NCBI GenBank assembly: GCA_017508825.1
Contig: JAFWRC010000183.1
Coordinates: 1 to 52,451, forward strand
DNA length: 52,451 bases
Direction: 5' to 3'
From: Lachnospiraceae bacterium
GTDB taxonomy: Bacteria > Bacillota > Clostridia > Lachnospirales > Lachnospiraceae
Part shown: positions 12,375-52,451 of the stretch, piece by piece
Layout: every line of letters starts with the position of its first letter
Position numbering within the stretch: the first letter of the stretch is position 1
Notes under the pieces: generated by a model
Databases searched by the model: none
What the model saw: the letters and a program-made list of their open reading frames with translations, nothing else
What the model was told of the DNA's origin: nothing
Translations under genes and position numbers: made by a program

Positions 12375-12797
12375 ATGAGAAAACGAATCAATGCCTATCT
12401 GGCTTTTATCGACAAGATCCTGGCGCACGACCTGCCCATCACCTCTTCTTTCCACGATGGTGGCGAGCACACCGATACACTGGTCAAGGACACGATCCCT
12501 ACGCGCAAAGACTATGAACGGATCATGACTTTGCATCTGCAGCAGATTGCTTTCTTCCAGCACGAGCGCCTGATCCATCTGTTGGTCACGATCCTGTTCG
12601 CCCTGCTGGCCTTCGCCATATTTATACTCAACTATATGGAACTGATGGCAGGCCGCCCGAACATCGGTCTCATCCTTTTGTTTGTTCTGATCGTCGTACT
12701 TCTCGTTCCCTATATAATGCACTATTTTCTTTTGGAAAACGGGGTGCAGAAAATGTACCGCCAGTATGATGAAATGGTAAGACAGATCCGCAGCTGA
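12375..12797 (+). CDS. Small two-helix membrane protein of unknown function
   Basis: 140 aa. The family is not recognised. An amphipathic N-terminal half (about 1-70) is followed by two adjacent membrane helices (LLVTILFALLAFAIFIL and LILLFVLIVVLLVPYIM) and a short charged tail. Both ends are probably cytoplasmic. The ATG at 12375 is set by GGAGA at 8 bases. Earlier in-frame starts would run into the rpsT stop and terminator. It lies between rpsT and a palindromic repeat, on the plus strand. Confidence 0.75.
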   Translation: MRKRINAYLAFIDKILAHDLPITSSFHDGGEHTDTLVKDTIPTRKDYERIMTLHLQQIAFFQHERLIHLLVTILFALLAFAIFILNYMELMAGRPNIGLILLFVLIVVLLVPYIMHYFLLENGVQKMYRQYDEMVRQIRS

Positions 12798-12873
12798 AAT
12801 AAGCCAAGGGGACGGTTCTTGTGGCTAAAGATCTTCGATCTTGTTGCCATAAGAACCGTCCCCTTGGCTTATT
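12798..12873. repeat. Long palindromic hairpin element, copy 1
   Basis: About 76 bases that fold back almost completely. The arms AATAAGCCAAGGGGACGG and CCGTCCCCTTGGCTTATT are perfect, and AAGATC-TTC-GATCTT closes the tip. A second copy in reverse orientation lies at 26205-26284. It sits between convergent genes and overlaps the stop codon of the DUF1836 gene. Small reading frames inside it are artefacts. REP-like or MITE-like origin is inferred. Confidence 0.85.
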
Positions 12874-13528
12874 ATTTATCCCGTTTCTCACCGGAATTCC
12901 GGAATCCCGACGCCTTTTTCTTCTGTACTTCGTGTTTTTCCGTGTATCCGTCAATGATCTTTTCGATCATCAGCTTCTTTACATACACATCAAAACTCAG
13001 ATCACAGATAAAAGCAAATAGCTGAAGAAACTCTTTCTCCTCCCCTTCCGGCAGTTCGTCGAAAGAAGTCTGTGATGCCCGGAATGTTTCCAGGATGTCT
13101 TCTTTAAAATCTTCGATGCGCTCCCGCTGGGCGCCGATCACTTCGTTATAGATCTTTTCGATCGTTACTTTTCCGTTTTTTCCGTAATACTTCTCCGCCA
13201 TCGGCCCGAGCATCTGCTGGATATCGCTGATGGACAGGATGTTCTTGAAATAATAGATAAACACCAGCAGCATGATATGCTCTTTGTTGTATTTCTTCTT
13301 ATCCGGCGGCGGCAGCAGATCATTCTTGGCATAATTGTTGATCATCGTTTTGGTCAGGATACGGTCCGTCCCCTGGTGCCGCGCCGTTTTTTTCAGTCTT
13401 GTATCAATATACGATGTCACCTGATCCATATACAGATCGATATTCGGAATGTCTTCCGGTTTGATAAAATCGATCCGTCCCAGACTTGCCATGATCGAAT
13501 TGATCAGGTCCTCCATATCTATCGTCAT
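12872..13528 (-). CDS. DUF1836 domain protein
   Basis: 218 aa. It matches the DUF1836 family of Firmicutes, small cytosolic proteins of unknown function with a MerR-like N-terminal part. The typical core TKTMINNYAKNDLLPPP and KKKYNKEHIMLLVFIYYFK is at about residues 59-93. The C-terminus is lysine-rich and ends within the palindromic element. The ATG at 13528 has RBS GGGAGG. The gene is convergent with the preceding membrane protein gene. A role as a DNA-binding regulator has been suggested for the fold, but nothing here proves it. Confidence 0.85.
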   Translation of the reverse strand: MTIDMEDLINSIMASLGRIDFIKPEDIPNIDLYMDQVTSYIDTRLKKTARHQGTDRILTKTMINNYAKNDLLPPPDKKKYNKEHIMLLVFIYYFKNILSISDIQQMLGPMAEKYYGKNGKVTIEKIYNEVIGAQRERIEDFKEDILETFRASQTSFDELPEGEEKEFLQLFAFICDLSFDVYVKKLMIEKIIDGYTEKHEVQKKKASGFRNSGEKRDK

Positions 13529-40610: not shown

Positions 40611-40703
40611 AATATTTGGTTGCTTATGTCCGCTTACAGTCCGATTGTTTCTCGGAGTGGCTCGCAAGCGGCCACGACGTTAAACTTTCATCTTGTTTAT
40701 ACG

Positions 40704-40774
40704 AGCAGGATACGGGAGTCGGACCCGCCTCTCAAGCTTGGGAAGCTTGCATACTACCGATGTACTAATCCTGC
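40704..40774 (-). tRNA. tRNA-Gly (anticodon CCC)
   Basis: A 71-base cloverleaf without encoded CCA. Acceptor arms are GCAGGAT and ATCCTGC, the anticodon arm is CAAGC-TTCCCAA-GCTTG with anticodon CCC, and the T arm is GCGGG-TCCGACT-CCCGT (one G-T pair). The D loop contains GG. The 5' end lies in the duplicated att sequence, so the promoter and first bases now come from the mobile element's left end. Confidence 0.92.
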
Positions 40775-40797
40775 ATTTCTAAAGCCCTATTCTACAA
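40755..40797. repeat. Left attachment site (direct repeat of tRNA 5' end)
   Basis: A 22-base segment (40755-40776, starting TACCGATGTACTAATCC) is repeated exactly at 51389-51410. Similarity continues through TCTAAAGCCCTATTCTAC with few changes. It covers the tRNA acceptor 5' strand, the D arm and the start of its promoter region. Confidence 0.9.
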
Positions 40798-40817
40798 GAC
40801 TTTAGAGGCCGTGTCAA
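40789..40817 (-). promoter_or_regulatory. Promoter of tRNA-Gly, supplied by the element end
   Basis: On the minus strand TTGACA (40812-40817), 17 bases, TAGAAT (40789-40794). The -10 ends 15 bases before the tRNA 5' base. Confidence 0.88.
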
Positions 40818-44360: not shown

Positions 44361-45827
44361 TCATCGGCTCCTTTCCGCCTCTCGTTTCCTGGTCTTATGC
44401 TGATCATAAATCTGTTTCTTAAAGGCATAAGCCTGGGAAGCCGCCTTCTTATACTTCTCCAGATCCGGTTTCAACGCCTGTATCTGCGCCTTATATCCGT
44501 CCCTTTCTTTGATGAGTTTATTGACCGGGATCTTCATATCGGGATACTGTTTCTTCAGTTCCCGCTCCGCCATATGATATGCATTCAGCTGTGGCTCATA
44601 CTTCTCGGCGAAGGCTTTCTTTTTCCTCGGATCCGCGATGCGATACCACTTCTGATATACCGGTCTGAATTCCTTATAGATCTTATATCGCTCCAGCACT
44701 TTATCGCAGGCTTTCACTTTCTCTTCCCATCCCTTCATTTCCTGTCGGATTCCGGACAGCTTGTCATACATCAACTTGGAATAATCCTTAAAATCTTCCA
44801 GATCATGAATATTGTTGTTTAGCACAAACTGATAAAGATCCAGCATTTTCCGGCTGGCGATCTTGCCCCTCGCATAGGTATACTTTTGTCTTATTTCTTT
44901 CTCGTAATCACCTAATGCTTCGAAAAGTTCCTTTGCTCTTGCCCGGTTCTCTTCCCTTGCCAACGCCTCGGCTTTCTTCCTTTCCTCAATATCCTCCAGG
45001 ATGCTTTTGAACGTATTCAGGATCTTCGTGAGTGCCTTATTTATACTCTTTATAAATCGGTTCCATTCACCCTTATCCGTTTTGAGCCCTCTGGCTTCCA
45101 TCGCCCTGACCTTTGGTCCTTCATGAACCTGCGGGAGCAGATCCAGCCCCTGATCGATATAGGAGCGATGATCTACCCGCTCCGGGATCCCGTTTCTCTC
45201 AAAAGCCTCATTCACTGTTCTTGCCCATTCCGCTCTCCAATGCTGCAGTGTCTCCGGCCGTCCCCAGTCCGTATCCCAGACGGCATTAAAGAGGTCTTCG
45301 CCATCCGGTCCTTTGATCCGGTTTCCGTTTTCGTCGAGAACATATTCCCTGTGCTGTTTGCTCCCCCAGGAACCATCTTCCTTCAGCGGACGTATCGGAG
45401 CCAGCACATGGACATGCGGATTGGGAATGTCATCCTCTCCTTTCCCCGGATCATGAAAAGCCACATCACAGATCATCCCCCTAGCCACGAAATTCTGCAT
45501 GATAAACTCTCTGGCGATCCGTATGTTTTCTTCTCTGCTCAGTTCGTTCTGAAGAGCAAAGTCAAAGGAATATGCCAGCTGCGCTTTGGGATGTTTCTCG
45601 ACTTTTTCCAATTCGTTCCAAAGGGTCTGCCTGTCAGAAAACCGTTCCGGTGCATTCTCCGGCAATAGGATTTCCGACATGATCACACCGCCTTTCTTTG
45701 TGTAATCATGAAATCCGCCGTAATAATCATCCTGCAGTTTTTCCCCTGCCCGGTACGCTGCAGCAGCTACTGCGCTTTGCCCGGCTCCTCTGGATACCCG
45801 GTCAACATGAAAATGATAAAGTGCCAT
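44361..45827 (-). CDS. MobA/MobL relaxase (MobQ family)
   Basis: 488 aa. The N-terminal relaxase domain (about 1-220) starts MALYHFHVDRVSRGAGQSAVAAAAYRAGE. The catalytic metal site is NPHVHVLAPIRP, with HxH of motif III. The C-terminal half is a long coiled, lysine-rich region with no primase or helicase. It nicks oriT and pilots the strand into a recipient with a helper secretion system. It overlaps the preceding small gene by a TAATG. A candidate oriT lies about 560 bases upstream. Confidence 0.93.
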   Translation of the reverse strand: MALYHFHVDRVSRGAGQSAVAAAAYRAGEKLQDDYYGGFHDYTKKGGVIMSEILLPENAPERFSDRQTLWNELEKVEKHPKAQLAYSFDFALQNELSREENIRIAREFIMQNFVARGMICDVAFHDPGKGEDDIPNPHVHVLAPIRPLKEDGSWGSKQHREYVLDENGNRIKGPDGEDLFNAVWDTDWGRPETLQHWRAEWARTVNEAFERNGIPERVDHRSYIDQGLDLLPQVHEGPKVRAMEARGLKTDKGEWNRFIKSINKALTKILNTFKSILEDIEERKKAEALAREENRARAKELFEALGDYEKEIRQKYTYARGKIASRKMLDLYQFVLNNNIHDLEDFKDYSKLMYDKLSGIRQEMKGWEEKVKACDKVLERYKIYKEFRPVYQKWYRIADPRKKKAFAEKYEPQLNAYHMAERELKKQYPDMKIPVNKLIKERDGYKAQIQALKPDLEKYKKAASQAYAFKKQIYDQHKTRKREAERSR

Positions 45828-46138
45828 TACTGCATCACCTCCCCGATCGGTTTCGGCTTAAAGTTCCTTGCGTACTCTTTCACTCCCGGGATCTTTAACA
45901 GCCCTTCGCAGAACTGGATGAAATCCGTTTTGCTCGCATCTTTGATCACCGGAAAGAAATGTTCCATATCTCCGGCCTTCGTGCACAGCATGTGCGTGCG
46001 TCTGGATCTTTCGATCTTCCCCAGCTTCGCAATCTTATTCTCTGTTCGGATAAGCTGATGCTCGTCCTGCTCCAATCGCGTTTTTGAGTCCTCCACCTCC
46101 CTTCGCATTCTTTCAAAATTCTCTTTTTTCTCTGCCAT
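45827..46138 (-). CDS. Mobilization accessory protein (DUF3847-like)
   Basis: 103 aa. A coiled N-terminal half (EKKENFERMRREVEDSKTRLEQDEHQ) is followed by the RRTHMLCTKAGDMEHFF block typical of small proteins encoded before MobA/MobL relaxases. It probably assists nicking or DNA binding. AAAGGAGGAG precedes ATG at 46138; a longer frame starting upstream overlaps a terminator and is unlikely. The stop overlaps the relaxase ATG. Confidence 0.8.
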   Translation of the reverse strand: MAEKKENFERMRREVEDSKTRLEQDEHQLIRTENKIAKLGKIERSRRTHMLCTKAGDMEHFFPVIKDASKTDFIQFCEGLLKIPGVKEYARNFKPKPIGEVMQ

Positions 46139-46168
46139 GTTCTTCTCCTCCTTTTGATTTTTTGGCAT

Positions 46169-46206
46169 AAAAAAAGCGCCCCGGATTTTTCCGAAACGCT
46201 ATTTTT
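46169..46206 (-). terminator. Terminator or attenuator ahead of the mob operon
   Basis: On the minus strand AGCG-TTT-CGG-AAAAAT-CCG-GGG-CGCT is followed by seven T's. It lies only 31 bases before the mob operon's first ATG, so it might attenuate it or end upstream transcripts. Confidence 0.75.
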
Positions 46207-46246
46207 CACAAGTATAATAATATCAGCCCGTTCCATTCTTGAAAAT

Positions 46247-46301
46247 GGACAAACGGTAGACAATCGGTGGACAGCCGGTGGACAATTGGTGGACACCGCC
46301 C
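46247..46301. repeat. Direct repeat array I: TGGACANNNGG, five copies, 11-bp period
   Basis: TGGACA or TAGACA starts at 46247, 46258, 46269, 46280 and 46291, exactly 11 bases apart. The same hexamer with the same period recurs outside the right att site (51459-51491). Confidence 0.9.
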
Positions 46302-46368
46302 TTCTCCGCAGCGCAGCGAAGGCAATCCCCGGCTATGCCGGATCCCTTCCGGCTCCTGCCGGACGCAC

Positions 46369-46410
46369 TACATCCCATAGGGATGTATAGAAGTGCGCCC
46401 TTATTAAAAT
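46369..46410 (+). other. Candidate oriT with RSF1010/MobQ-like nic region
   Basis: An 8-bp inverted repeat TACATCCC-ATA-GGGATGTA (46369-46387) is followed by TAG and AAGTGCGCCCTTATT. The core AAGTGCG/CCCT equals the nic consensus of RSF1010 and Ti-type MobQ origins, which also follow a short inverted repeat. The nick is predicted between 46397 and 46398. The relaxase upstream is of the matching family. Confidence 0.75.
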
Positions 46411-46512
46411 AAGGGAAAAAGAAAAGGACCGCTCCTCATCGGTGGCGATCCTTACATCTTTTATCGACATTATAATCTTATCACAGTTTTCCTCCGTCCG
46501 AAAGTGTAAAAA

Positions 46513-46589
46513 GGTGGTATTCATGTGGTATTCAGGTAGCGTAAAGGTGGTATCCAGGTGGATCCAAGGTGGTATCCGGGTGCAACGTC
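46513..46589. repeat. Direct repeat array II: GGTGGTATYCA, seven units, 11-bp period
   Basis: Units begin at 46513, 46524, 46535, 46546, 46557, 46568 and 46579. Most read GGTGGTATTCA or GGTGGTATCCA; units 3, 5 and 7 are degenerate. Confidence 0.88.
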
Positions 46590-46682
46590 CAACTATTCTC
46601 ACCTTATCAAAATAAGGGATGCTGCAAAAAAGCTTCCTTATCGCTCCATCATAACTATAACACCATCCTCATCCCGCGTAAA

Positions 46683-46732
46683 AGTTCATTGCGGGTTCAT
46701 GCTGGGTGAATTTCGGTTCCGATCGGGTTCAC
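46683..46732. repeat. Degenerate direct repeat array III around GGGTTCA
   Basis: GTTCA-like cores occur at 46684, 46695, 46706 (GTGAA), 46716 and 46727, with spacings 11, 11, 10, 11. Confidence 0.55.
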
Positions 46733-46793
46733 TTTGCAAACCGATCACATTATAAATATATCAGGTCTGCAAGAAGAAAAAAATACTAAAACA

Positions 46794-46837
46794 GTACTAT
46801 TTCCGTACTATTTCGGTACTATTTTCGTACTATTTCC
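46794..46837. repeat. Direct repeat array IV: GTACTATTTYC, four copies, 11-bp period
   Basis: Four head-to-tail units start at 46794, 46805, 46816 and 46827, about 30 bases before the end of the DUF6273 gene. The rest of 46139-46868 holds no gene that I can support. Confidence 0.92.
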
Positions 46838-46868
46838 TTCCGTTATTTTATTCTTTTCTAATCCTTAA

Positions 46869-50404: not shown

Positions 50405-50436
50405 ACATATAGATCTTATGAAAGAAGGTGAAGCAA

Positions 50437-50745
50437 ATGGCTAAAACTGCTAATGTCCTTGCACGAATAGAGCCCGAAGTAAAAGAAGAAGCTGAAAGCA
50501 TTTTAAACCAGATCGGAGTACCTTCATCTGTAGTTATAAATATGCTTTATAAACAGATCATTTATACAAGAGGGATACCCTTTGCCCTGACACTAAATCA
50601 CGAACCGGTTTCCCGTGAAGAAATGACGGACCGGGAATTTGATTCTATGATCGAAACAGGCCTGGCACAGGCAAAGGCCGGTAAGGGTCGTTCAACCTCC
50701 GATGTTGCTAAAAGCATTAAGAAAAAAATTAAGGAGTGGAAGTAA
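50437..50745 (+). CDS. RelB/DinJ-type antitoxin
   Basis: 102 aa. The N-terminal ribbon-helix-helix NVLARIEPEVKEEAESILNQIG and PSSVVINMLYKQI (about 5-45) is the RelB/DinJ DNA-binding and dimer domain. GIPFALTLN and the charged C-terminus that wraps the toxin follow. GAAGGTG precedes ATG at 50437. The stop overlaps the toxin ATG (TAATG). Confidence 0.92.
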   Translation: MAKTANVLARIEPEVKEEAESILNQIGVPSSVVINMLYKQIIYTRGIPFALTLNHEPVSREEMTDREFDSMIETGLAQAKAGKGRSTSDVAKSIKKKIKEWK

Positions 50746-51080
50746 TGAATGTATTTGAAGTTACTATCACACCGCAGGCAGAATCCCAGTTAGAAAACAT
50801 CGCTCACTATATTGCATCAGAACTAAAAGATCCTGATGCTGCTGAAAACCTTGTTGATGATATCATCGATGCAGTGGAAGGATTGTCCCATAACCCGGAG
50901 AAATATCATCCCATCGATGAGGAGCCCTGGGGCTCTCAGGGTGTAAGAAAGATCCATATAAAGAACTATTATGCATACTTTGGGATAGATATTGAGAATG
51001 CTACTGTATGGATCATAGCGATTGTTTATGCCAAAAGAGACCAGAAGAAATTCTTATCTTCGTTGAATAATCAATCATAG
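50745..51080 (+). CDS. RelE/ParE-family toxin
   Basis: 111 aa, single-domain fold. Residues typical of the family are FEVTITPQAESQLENIAHYIASEL, ENLVDDIIDAVEGLSHNPEKYHPI and VRKIHIKNYYAYFGIDIENATVWIIAIVYAKRD. The ParE-like layout (long helical hairpin) makes gyrase inhibition possible, but RelE-like mRNA cutting cannot be excluded. Coupled to the antitoxin through TAATG. Likely stabilises the element in the host. Confidence 0.9.
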   Translation: MNVFEVTITPQAESQLENIAHYIASELKDPDAAENLVDDIIDAVEGLSHNPEKYHPIDEEPWGSQGVRKIHIKNYYAYFGIDIENATVWIIAIVYAKRDQKKFLSSLNNQS

Positions 51081-51388: not shown

Positions 51389-51430
51389 TACCGATGTACT
51401 AATCCTGCATCTCTAGAAGCCCTATTTTAC
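51389..51430. repeat. Right attachment site (second copy of tRNA 5' end)
   Basis: 51389-51410 equals 40755-40776. TCTAGAAGCCCTATTTTAC after it matches the left copy with three differences. The rest of the tRNA is absent here, so this copy is not a tRNA gene. Confidence 0.9.
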
Positions 51431-51452
51431 ACGGCTTCCGGGGTACTGTCAA
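51424..51452 (-). promoter_or_regulatory. Orphan tRNA promoter at the right att site
   Basis: On the minus strand TTGACA (51447-51452), 17 bases, TAAAAT (51424-51429), leading into the first 19 tRNA bases and then the element end. It parallels the promoter at 40789-40817. Confidence 0.82.
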
Positions 51453-51458
51453 GGGAAA

Positions 51459-51491
51459 TGGACAATTTTTGGACAAGATTTGGACAATCCA
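51459..51491. repeat. Arm-type repeats beside the second integrase: TGGACA, 11-bp period
   Basis: TGGACA at 51459, 51470 and 51481. They stand between the right att copy and the second integrase in the same relation as the CTAAC repeats to the first integrase. Confidence 0.75.
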
Positions 51492-51532
51492 TATGATTTT
51501 TTTCCGCTTTCTCGCCCAAAAATCCCCCCTTA

Positions 51533-52451
51533 CTATGACACCAACATAAACTTTTTCATTTCCATCATAGACTGCTCTTCCGTCGTATGAACATACCTGT
51601 TCATAGTGAAAGAAACGTCGCTATGTCCCAACCACTCCTGAACCGTCTTCGGGGCAATCCCACTCTCGATCGCTCTCGTGGCAAAAGTATGCCGCAAGAC
51701 ATGACAGGTCAGCTGCTTTTCAAAATGCATCCGTTTCTTGATCGCCGCAAGACTCCGGTTATAGACCGCATCTAAAGTCGGCAGTCCGTCCTCCTTAAGA
51801 AAGATCGTTCCAACTTTGGTAAACTCCGTCATCTTAATACACTTAAGCGGCGTCCTCTTCACACGAAGCAATGTTTCATAAGCCAACGGATTAAGCGGGA
51901 TCGTTCTCTTGCCCTTTTTGGTCTTCGGCGGATTCGTATGAAAAGTCTTGGTCTCCTGATTATAATATACCGACCGGTTCACAAACAGGGTTCCTGCATC
52001 AAAATCAATATCCGACCAACGTAGTCCTGCCAGTTCCCCGTATCTGATTCCGGTATTTAACATCAGAACAAACGCATTATAATGAACACTCTTTTCAGCT
52101 TCCTCCATGAAGGCCTTGTGCTCTTCCCTGTCAAGCGGATCTACTTCCTTCGGTTCCCGTTTGGGCATTTCCAGTTCCAGCTCTTCCATAGGATTGCTTC
52201 GAATAAGCCTTCTGACTCTGGCGTGCTTGAACATATTGCTCATCACATACATTGTCTTGTTCAAGGTGCTTTTCGCGACTCCACTCCTGACTGCCTTCTC
52301 CCATACCATATCAATATGGTACGTCAGCACTTCCCTTACAAGCATCTTCCCCAGAAAAGGTTTAATACGACGATTTTAATTTTAATGATATACACGGATC
52401 GCATTATAACGAAGCTCTTTATCAATCTTCCATTGGATCCAGGTATCAAAA
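51533..52451 (-). pseudogene. Second tyrosine integrase, broken by two in-frame stops, cut by window edge
   Basis: The intact C-terminal 270 codons (from ATG 52345) hold the core and catalytic domains: TGIRYGEL, HVLRHTFATR, GHSDVSFTMN and the tyrosine in RYVHTTEEQ. Upstream the same frame continues with WIQWKIDKELRYNAIRVYH, then TAA at 52382-52384 and 52376-52378, then NRRIKPFLGKMLVREV. This aligns with the first integrase (YNTIRIYRCRYEHRIQSYIG), so the stops interrupt a once-complete gene. Single A-to-T changes in AAA codons would explain both. The start lies beyond the window. Confidence 0.8.

What the first reader, a model, noticed from the sequence alone, without database searches (positions are those of the whole stretch)
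46247..46837. Four different direct-repeat arrays, nearly all 11-bp period, in one intergenic region
Within 600 bases there are arrays of TGGACANNNGG (5), GGTGGTATYCA (7), GTTCA-like (5, degenerate; spacings 11, 11, 10, 11) and GTACTATTTYC (4). Units differ between arrays, but the period is 11 bp in all except one 10-bp step, so a helix-phased protein filament or array could bind. Iterons, partition centromeres bound by ribbon-helix-helix proteins, or stacked integrase arm sites are options. I know of no described locus with four such arrays side by side.
Basis: seen in the sequence. Interest (0 to 1): 0.78.

Follow-up and report, generated by a model that had tools for sequence, protein, structure and literature searches.

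The report
Bank of interchangeable promoters near oriT
A small mobile DNA element in a bacterium of the gut family Lachnospiraceae carries a row of look-alike promoter sites, each preceded by a different short repeated sequence, which may let it listen for several different partner elements before it moves.

Summary
Four 11-bp direct-repeat arrays lie in the oriT region of a 10.6-kb integrative mobilizable element (int, xis, VapE, CHC2, MobL, DUF3847) in tRNA-Gly. Each is followed, in the direction of the mob operon, by the same promoter-like motif: TT, about 20 nt, TGnTAnnnT, TATAAT. The arrangement recurs in five other loci. In 26 modules (picked by eye) from 6 loci the period is 10 or 11 bp (24 of 26 beat shuffles) and the units differ; the array reaches the -35 position in at least 14, stops about one unit short in 9 and is weak in 3. 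Two close relatives keep one promoter but have different arrays in front of it. Array-free relatives exist; 19 of 55 loci match a Cro/CI-type repressor upstream, the five array-bearing elements do not. Best reading: a bank of activator-dependent promoters for the mobilization/replication/excision operon, each read by a different protein encoded outside the element, as SGI1 uses its helper's AcaCD. Arrays, geometry and swapping are shown; activation and the readers are inferred. Candidate readers are integrase or excisionase-type proteins of other elements (suggestive, not decisive) or phage-type initiators. A terminator before the operon is unexplained.

The parts
46246..46300 (-). Array A, five 11-bp units (mob-sense TGTCCACCNNT)
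   Evidence: (p=0.005); like units in L033, L057, L130
46211..46245 (-). Promoter-like site A: TTTTCA, 17 nt, TG before TATTAT, then TATACT
   Evidence: reported by the consensus scan
46513..46578 (-). Array B, four clear units, one weak, others by register only (mob-sense GGATACCACCT / TGAATACCACC)
   Evidence: (p=0.015)
46469..46503 (-). Promoter-like site B (TGATAAGAT TATAAT; -35 position by register)
46416..46453 (-). Possible terminator downstream of promoter B (inverted repeat and T-run, seen by eye; not reported by the scan)
   Evidence: position; not folded
46683..46736 (-). Array C, five degenerate units (mob-sense TGAAC)
   Evidence: (p=0.035)
46648..46682 (-). Promoter-like site C: TTTACG, 17 nt, TG before TATAGT, then TATGAT
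   Evidence: reported by the consensus scan
46784..46837 (-). Array D, four units plus a partial one (mob-sense GGAAATAGTAC)
   Evidence: (p=0.005)
46749..46783 (-). Promoter-like site D (TGATATATT TATAAT; -35 position by register)
46363..46415 (-). Putative oriT: two hairpins around GGGCGCACTTCTATAC
   Evidence: motif in relatives; hairpins folded in 6 sequences; likeness to the RSF1010-type nic region is recalled, from no call
46169..46200 (-). Intrinsic terminator between promoter A and the DUF3847 ribosome-binding site; present in the 6 sequences folded
45827..46168 (-). DUF3847 gene, first of the operon
   Evidence: PF12958
44361..45827 (-). MobA/MobL relaxase gene
   Evidence: PF03389
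43719..44360 (-). CHC2 zinc-finger primase-like gene
   Evidence: PF01807
42470..43798 (-). VapE-like gene
   Evidence: PF05272
42138..42407 (-). Tn916-type excisionase gene
   Evidence: PF09035
40869..42059 (-). Tyrosine integrase gene
   Evidence: PF00589
40756..40776 (+). att repeat at the integrase end, overlapping tRNA-Gly (40703-40774)
51390..51410 (+). att repeat at the other end of the element

Best explanation
The region is a bank of tandem, activator-dependent promoters that read into the element's mobilization-replication-excision operon and lie around its oriT. Each has no good -35 box; at or just before that place stands a phased array of 10- or 11-bp direct repeats. A protein, or a filament of a small winged-helix protein, bound to the array would touch RNA polymerase and switch the promoter on. 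Because the units differ within an element, each promoter should answer to a different protein. Because no matching set of regulators was recognised in the element, and it lacks the repressor that a good part of its relatives have, these proteins are most likely encoded outside it, by helper or neighbouring mobile elements. The result would be an OR gate: any one of several partners turns the element on. Shown: arrays, period, promoter-like motif and its position, exchange of arrays at one promoter, no match to the relatives' repressor. Inferred: that the motifs are working promoters, that binding activates, who binds, and that transcription gets past the terminator in front of the operon.
For: 26 modules in 6 loci, anchored on TATAAT: best three-unit repeat at period 10 or 11 in all 26 (periods 7-15 allowed); over 21 non-redundant modules T in 19 and 20 of 21 at -29 and -28, TGnTAnnnT in 18, 21, 20, 21, 20 of 21, TAnnnT in 21, 21, 20 of 21. 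Periodicity beats dinucleotide shuffles in 24 of 26 (p<=0.05). An automatic scan of the 1.47 Mb then held, for arrays 26-32 nt before such a motif, gave 17 rows with repeat score 16 or more (14 of them in these regions, some echoes of one array) and none in one shuffled copy. The general scanner reports two of the four window sites as TTTnnn-17-TG-TAnnnT. L033 and L130 share GGTAAAATATATAATAACAAAT but have different arrays in front. Cro/CI-like match upstream in 19 of 55 loci, sigma70_r2 gene in 11 of 55, neither in 5 array-bearing elements (Pfam for three and two of these proteins). SGI1: AcaCD promoters lack a -35 box, -10 box 22-24 bp after the activator site (PMC5058578, passages); here 23 nt lie between the -35 edge and TAnnnT. 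Helper regulators drive excision genes of such islands (PMC5704250 section 7).
Against: No expression data. I picked the 26 modules by eye for an array and a TATAAT-like motif, so the conservation of the TGnTAnnnT/TATAAT columns is partly built in; the T's at -29/-28 are not. The array does not always reach the -35 edge: a block scoring 14 or more ends 27-31 nt before TATAAT in at least 14 of 26, 35-40 nt before in 9, and 3 stay under 14. L057 module 1 and G112 module 2 fail the shuffle test. A strong terminator stands between promoter A and the operon and another may follow promoter B, so only short RNAs may be made. No helper promoter with a matching array is in hand: TGTCNACCNNNTGTCCACC only in array A (1 of 200 genomes), TGTCACG x3 only in the same elements (3 of 24 and 1 of 299 genomes). 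Of 52 array-free loci, 33 match neither repressor nor sigma gene, so the repressor-for-array exchange is not general. Which -10-like hexamer is used is unknown.
Confidence: 0.55

Rival explanations
1. The arrays are arm-type binding sites of tyrosine integrases (or of their excisionases) of other elements; those recombination proteins either regulate the promoters, or the modules are captured ends of other elements.
For: Exact repeated 7-mers at lag 10-12 lie within 300 nt behind integrase genes in 94 of 116 flanks, against 20 of 116 in the shorter stretches beyond. The neighbouring integrase of the window has TGTCCA x3, the core of array A; L033 module 3 shares TTGTCCATTTCCC with it and has TAAAAT at the same 29-nt distance (by eye). 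With 106 flanks plus all 19 ends, 10 of 22 modules share a repeated hexamer, reached by 3 of 1000 letter permutations; reversed control 3, complement 2. Excisionases acting as transcription factors for transfer genes have precedents (PMC9956884 and PMC11963761, passages).
Against: With the 106 flanks alone 6 of 22 modules share a hexamer and 134 of 1000 permutations reach that; the reverse complement scores 6 in every version. Two of the ten hits rest on the neighbouring integrase alone and two more partly. Repeats beside integrases are mostly 11 or 12 bp apart (38 and 37 flanks; 10 at 10 bp), modules 11 or 10 (16 and 5 of 22). Integrase flanks in general have no promoter behind the repeats (5 of 94, 2.2 expected).
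Confidence: 0.3
2. The arrays are iterons for replication initiators: either the element's own, or phage-type initiators that would replicate or betray a partner to it.
For: TGTCACG at 10-bp period, the unit of L033 module 2, occurs three times in a row in 40 viral contigs, in about 19 of them inside genes that look like replication proteins by eye; of three tested, one has a DnaT domain and one a Phage_rep_org_N match just under the curated cut-off. P4-type iterons resemble GGTGGACA (recalled, from no call).
Against: Repeated cores of 56 initiator genes are shared by 3 of 22 modules, reached by 452 of 1000 permutations. Repeats in related initiators are mostly inverted pairs followed by a purine-rich stretch absent here (by eye). 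A single initiator would not read four units, and VapE type does not follow the arrays.
Confidence: 0.15
3. The modules make short RNAs that end at the terminators and act near oriT, as the small RNA of SGI1 does, rather than drive the operon.
For: Terminator directly after promoter A, present in the 6 sequences folded; SGI1 needs a small RNA encoded beside its oriT (PMC9299015, abstract).
Against: The stretches behind different modules differ and several modules run straight into the next array; the terminator is also in L055, which has no arrays.
Confidence: 0.2
4. The arrays are the relaxosome's binding sites (DUF3847 or MobL accessory sites at oriT).
For: They flank the putative oriT, and DUF3847 lies beside MobL in several relatives.
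Against: L055 and L112 keep the relaxase and the oriT motif without arrays; units differ within one element.
Confidence: 0.05

Closest known systems
AcaCD-responsive promoters of SGI1 and related islands (IncC helper plasmids)
   Same: A mobilizable island whose excision and transfer genes have promoters without a -35 box; activator site 22-24 bp before the -10 box (PMC5058578, passages)
   Different: SGI1 answers to one activator family at promoters spread over the island; here several different arrays stand in tandem before one operon, and units are exchanged between elements
CTnDOT Xis2d and Mesorhizobium RdfS: excisionases that act as transcription factors for transfer
   Same: Recombination proteins that bind promoter or mob/tra regions; RdfS and BldC form head-to-tail filaments, BldC with one DNA turn between molecules (PMC11963761 abstract and passages, PMC9956884 passages; the Xis2d paper seen only as a reference title)
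   Different: RdfS shows no consensus motif; here units are sharp and differ from array to array
Repeats beside tyrosine-integrase genes (arm-type sites of Tn916-like elements)
   Same: Short direct repeats about 11 bp apart, some sharing a core with array units
   Different: Arrays have up to five clear copies, 10-11 bp spacing, and stand before promoter-like motifs inside the element, not at its ends
Iterons inside phage replication-protein genes
   Same: TGTCACG x3 at 10-bp period in 40 viral contigs
   Different: No purine-rich stretch behind, promoter-like motif instead, no initiator gene of that kind beside it

Membership tests
Integrative mobilizable element (IME) | Own integrase and excisionase | tested here: met
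   PF00589 and PF09035
Integrative mobilizable element (IME) | Own relaxase and oriT | tested here: met
   PF03389; hairpins and GGGCGCAC motif upstream, (oriT activity not tested)
Integrative mobilizable element (IME) | att repeats at both ends, tRNA target | tested here: met
   21-bp repeat at 40756-40776 and 51390-51410; tRNA-Gly 40703-40774
Integrative mobilizable element (IME) | No mating-pair formation genes of its own | tested here: inconclusive
   none among the 10 proteins scanned; other ORFs were not scanned
Helper-activated promoters of AcaCD type | No -35 box, activator site ending at the -35 position | tested here: inconclusive
   TTTnnn in place of TTGACA; array reaches that position in at least 14 of 26 modules, stops short in 9, weak in 3
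Helper-activated promoters of AcaCD type | Binding of a helper-encoded activator that raises transcription | not testable with these tools
   needs binding and reporter assays
Helper-activated promoters of AcaCD type | AcaCD/FlhDC-type recognition core | tested here: not met
   the published core GCCCAAAATGGGC is not among the array units (compared by eye); not a member, only alike in layout
Integrase arm-type sites | Unit sequence shared with repeats at the ends of an element with that integrase | tested here: inconclusive
Replication origin iterons | Array next to its initiator gene and a melting region | tested here: not met
   no Phage_rep_org_N match in the own, incomplete genome; no purine-rich stretch (by eye); VapE does not follow arrays

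The most novel reading that the evidence does not exclude
A mobilizable element that eavesdrops on several unrelated partners at once: it keeps a bank of swappable sensor promoters, each carrying the recognition array of a different integrase, excisionase or initiator of another mobile element, so that any partner's activation launches its own excision, replication and transfer. The arrays would then be a record of which partners a lineage has met.
Probability: 0.3. Interest if true: 0.87.

Novelty: new variant of a known kind. Interest (0 to 1): 0.7.

Why it matters
Helper-dependent elements are known to borrow one helper's activator. A modular, exchangeable bank of inputs before a single operon would show how such elements keep or widen their set of helpers, would give a sequence code (array unit to partner protein) that can be read across genomes, and would make the open question of how Firmicute mobilizable elements time their transfer directly testable with reporter fusions.

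Tried and rejected
Own-replicase iterons: disfavoured because arrays do not follow the VapE type. Own integrase repeats: these are TTTTTCTAACTT at both ends. Partition site: no par gene among the proteins scanned. Coding repeat: only short ORFs overlap the region. Relaxosome sites: contradicted by array-free relatives with the oriT motif. Search for other places with the same arrays: none found; (array-D end plus promoter) matched 6 of 397 genomes, three of them real modules (G000, G134, G112) and three (G054, G248, G345) taken for chance without being read; one search was badly designed (one base too many in the spacer) and its four hits were taken for chance. Plasmid and phage collections: no match to the region (window against plasmids, L057 against phages and plasmids). 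Viral contigs: TGTCYACC x3 in 2, AATAGTAC x3 in 0, TGTCACG x3 in 40, CCACC/TGTCCACC in 6, AGTAC-type in 9, a GTAGG-promoter pattern in 0; the 2, 6 and 9 were only glanced at and look like unrelated phages. The initiator hypothesis was my lead for a while; the direct test did not support it. The first integrase test used 10 of the 19 integrase ends, picked after I had seen them; one search repeats it without that choice and is the one to trust. The idea that integrase repeats generally stand before promoters failed.

Rows dropped: one search used 20 upstream stretches (L042 left out). One search used 60 of the 62 loci (L114, L115 left out, weak partial matches). One search counts the 55 loci with at least 1 kb upstream. 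Searches fetched 76 of the 85 integrase rows without a locus (nine left out: stops inside, contig ends, a fragment, or already held). One search drops five near copies from the column counts (26 to 21); drop four (26 to 22). On re-checking I lowered the main confidence from 0.6 to 0.55, because the array reaches the -35 edge in about half of the modules, not in all.

Full report
What the region is in. The window's 40.76-51.41 kb stretch is one integrated element: a 21-bp repeat at 40756-40776 and 51390-51410, the first copy overlapping tRNA-Gly 40703-40774; on the minus strand int, Tn916-type xis, VapE, CHC2, MobA/MobL relaxase and DUF3847; then the intergenic region 46169-46868 of the finding; then DUF6273, ABC- and GntR-like genes (named from the ORFs, not scanned) and RelB/ParE genes. 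A second integrase gene follows at 51533 in the same orientation behind a copy of the att repeat, so a second element seems to be integrated in tandem. The element's own integrase has repeats TTTTTCTAACTT at both ends. The genome is 3.78 Mb in 328 contigs. Its family is probably Lachnospiraceae: a contig of a same-family genome (G122:C58, 52,872 bases, listed's source table) has the length of the Roseburia hominis record found.

The observation. The four arrays are present at the stated places; A, B and D are also found by TRF. Of the four strict three-unit 10/11-bp arrays in the window, three lie here; the fourth is beside the second integrase gene. Against dinucleotide shuffles the four stretches give p = 0.005, 0.015, 0.035, 0.005 (A, B, C, D).

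What the arrays are attached to. In the sense of the mob operon each array is followed by a TATAAT-like hexamer. I saw this by eye in the window and in the closest relative L033 (relaxase 64% identical), then in L057 and L110, L130/L131 and a stretch of G112. The 26 modules are those I picked this way. Anchored on the hexamer, their best three-unit repeat has period 10 or 11 in all 26 when periods 7-15 are allowed. Over 21 non-redundant modules the most conserved columns are T, T (19 and 20 of 21) at -29 and -28, TGnTAnnnT (18, 21, 20, 21, 20 of 21) and TAnnnT (21, 21, 20 of 21). The last two were part of what I looked for; the T's were not. The array columns are weakly conserved at best (0.88 bits at -41). 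A repeat block scoring 14 or more of 18 ends 27-31 nt before the hexamer in at least 14 modules, 35-40 nt before in 9 (among them window B and the GTAGG type, where a partial unit seems to fill the gap, by eye), and 3 modules stay under 14 (L057-3, L110-4, L130-0). I read this as a promoter with a degenerate -35 (TTTnnn), a 17-nt spacer and an extended -10 TGnTAnnnT, with a second -10-like TATAAT behind it; the general scanner reports two of the four window sites in this form. Periodicity beats shuffles in 24 of 26 modules at p <= 0.05; L057-1 and G112-2 fail. As a check without hand-picking, a scan of all 1.47 Mb then held found 17 rows with repeat score 16 or more at 26-32 nt before such a motif and none in one shuffled copy; 14 of the 17 lie in these regions, some of them echoes of the same array.

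Relatives. Of 20 upstream stretches only L033 had several arrays. Of 60 loci from named genomes three had them: L056 (the same sequence as L033), L057 and L110. A search of the 24 genomes in the genus of L033's host gave two more, L130 and L131, which print identically in this region. So the arrays belong to a subset of elements: L055 (relaxase 63%) and L112 have the oriT motif and no arrays. Unit types recur between elements: TGTCCACC-like in window A, L033, L057, L130; AATAGTAC in window D, L057, G112 and, shortened, L110; GTAGG in L033, L057, L110, L130, G112; others were seen once or in the L033/L130 pair (TGTCACG at 10 bp in both, TGTTACC in L110, TGACCGC in L057, TGCTCACG in L033). L033 and L130 have the same last promoter with different arrays in front of it: the unit changed, promoter and period stayed. 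L130/L131 carry one more array (GGCAACT) 32 nt before a weakly matching site in front of a DUF4417 and a Tox-GHH gene.

What replaces what. In 8 of 13 array-free loci that I looked at, a Cro/CI-type gene lies divergently upstream, in some followed by a sigma70_r2 gene (Pfam for three of the former and two of the latter). By tblastn such a repressor matches in 19 of 55 loci, the sigma gene in 11 of 55, neither in five array-bearing elements. Thirty-six of the 55 match neither; three of these are the array-bearing L056, L057 and L110. The exchange is a tendency, not a rule, and other kinds of repressor were not sought.

Mechanism. An array at or near the -35 position of a promoter that lacks a -35 box is the layout of activator-dependent promoters. 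The AcaCD promoters of SGI1 have no obvious -35 box and a -10 box 22-24 bp behind the activator site (PMC5058578, passages); here 23 nt lie between the -35 edge and TAnnnT. The review of mobilizable elements says that helper regulators (AcaCD, SetCD) switch on excision genes (PMC5704250, passages and section 7). I therefore propose a bank of promoters in front of the mob-rep-xis-int operon, each read by a different outside protein. No transcript or binding was measured.

Who reads the arrays. (1) Recombination proteins. Integrase genes of this family often have 11-12-bp direct repeats behind them. The neighbouring integrase of the window has TGTCCA three times, the core of array A, standing 29 nt before the -10 of a tRNA-Gly promoter (by eye). 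A test of shared repeated hexamers gives 10 of 22 modules with 125 flanks (3 of 1000 letter permutations as high), 8 of 22 with the 106 flanks plus the neighbour (15 of 1000), but 6 of 22 with the 106 alone (134 of 1000); the reverse complement scores 6 each time. An earlier, better-looking figure used hand-picked flanks. Suggestive only. Excisionases that act as transcription factors, and winged-helix filaments with one DNA turn between molecules, are known (PMC11963761 abstract and passages; PMC9956884 passages). (2) Replication initiators. TGTCACG three times at 10 bp occurs in 40 viral contigs, in about 19 inside genes that look like replication proteins (by eye; three tested: one DnaT, one Phage_rep_org_N under the cut-off, one without match). 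But initiator genes in general do not share cores with the modules (3 of 22, 452 of 1000 permutations) and their repeats are mostly inverted. (3) Helper promoters with the same array. None found, but the genomes searched are samples and many are incomplete.

Open problem. A strong terminator lies between promoter A and the first gene in the six sequences folded, including array-free L055. Either transcription is antiterminated, or enough reads through, or the modules make short RNAs beside oriT, as an SGI1 small RNA suggests (PMC9299015, abstract only).

Literature. The listings, searches of an open-licence library, show no title or abstract start describing several different arrays side by side at an oriT; that is the extent of the claim.

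Noticed in passing
window 51390-52451: A second tyrosine integrase behind the same tRNA-Gly att repeat: probably two elements in tandem. Its repeats TGGACANNNNN x3 lie just before a TTGACA-17-TAAAAT promoter towards the att repeat; the first element brings a similar promoter at 40789-40817 (by eye).
   Followed up: partly
L131 12749-14156 (and L130 8120-9601): Array GGCAACT (11 bp) and a weak promoter-like site before a DUF4417 gene and a Tox-GHH (HNH) gene beside a related element.
   Followed up: partly
L125 about 12770-13090 (G112:C61): Three array-promoter modules with no MobL gene near by, between genes that look like remnants of another mobile element.
   Followed up: partly
L142-L181: TGTCACG direct repeats at 10-bp period in 40 viral contigs, about 19 of them inside genes that look like replication proteins, several followed by a purine-rich stretch.
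   Followed up: partly
L198-L302: Phage_rep_org_N initiator genes carry short, fast-changing, mostly palindromic repeats just before a CACCAGAGATAGAG-like purine stretch; several lie near MobL matches (G013, G035, G119, G133, G138; coordinates).
   Followed up: partly
L055 1212-2569, L073 7998-9292: Array-free relatives pair a Cro/CI-type gene with a small sigma70_r2 protein upstream of the oriT motif.
   Followed up: partly
window 50428-51080: RelB/ParE-type toxin-antitoxin genes near the right end of the element.
   Followed up: no
L002 1501-1523 (G000:C164): A 23-nt exact match to window 46772-46794, the edge of array D, elsewhere in the same genome.
   Followed up: no
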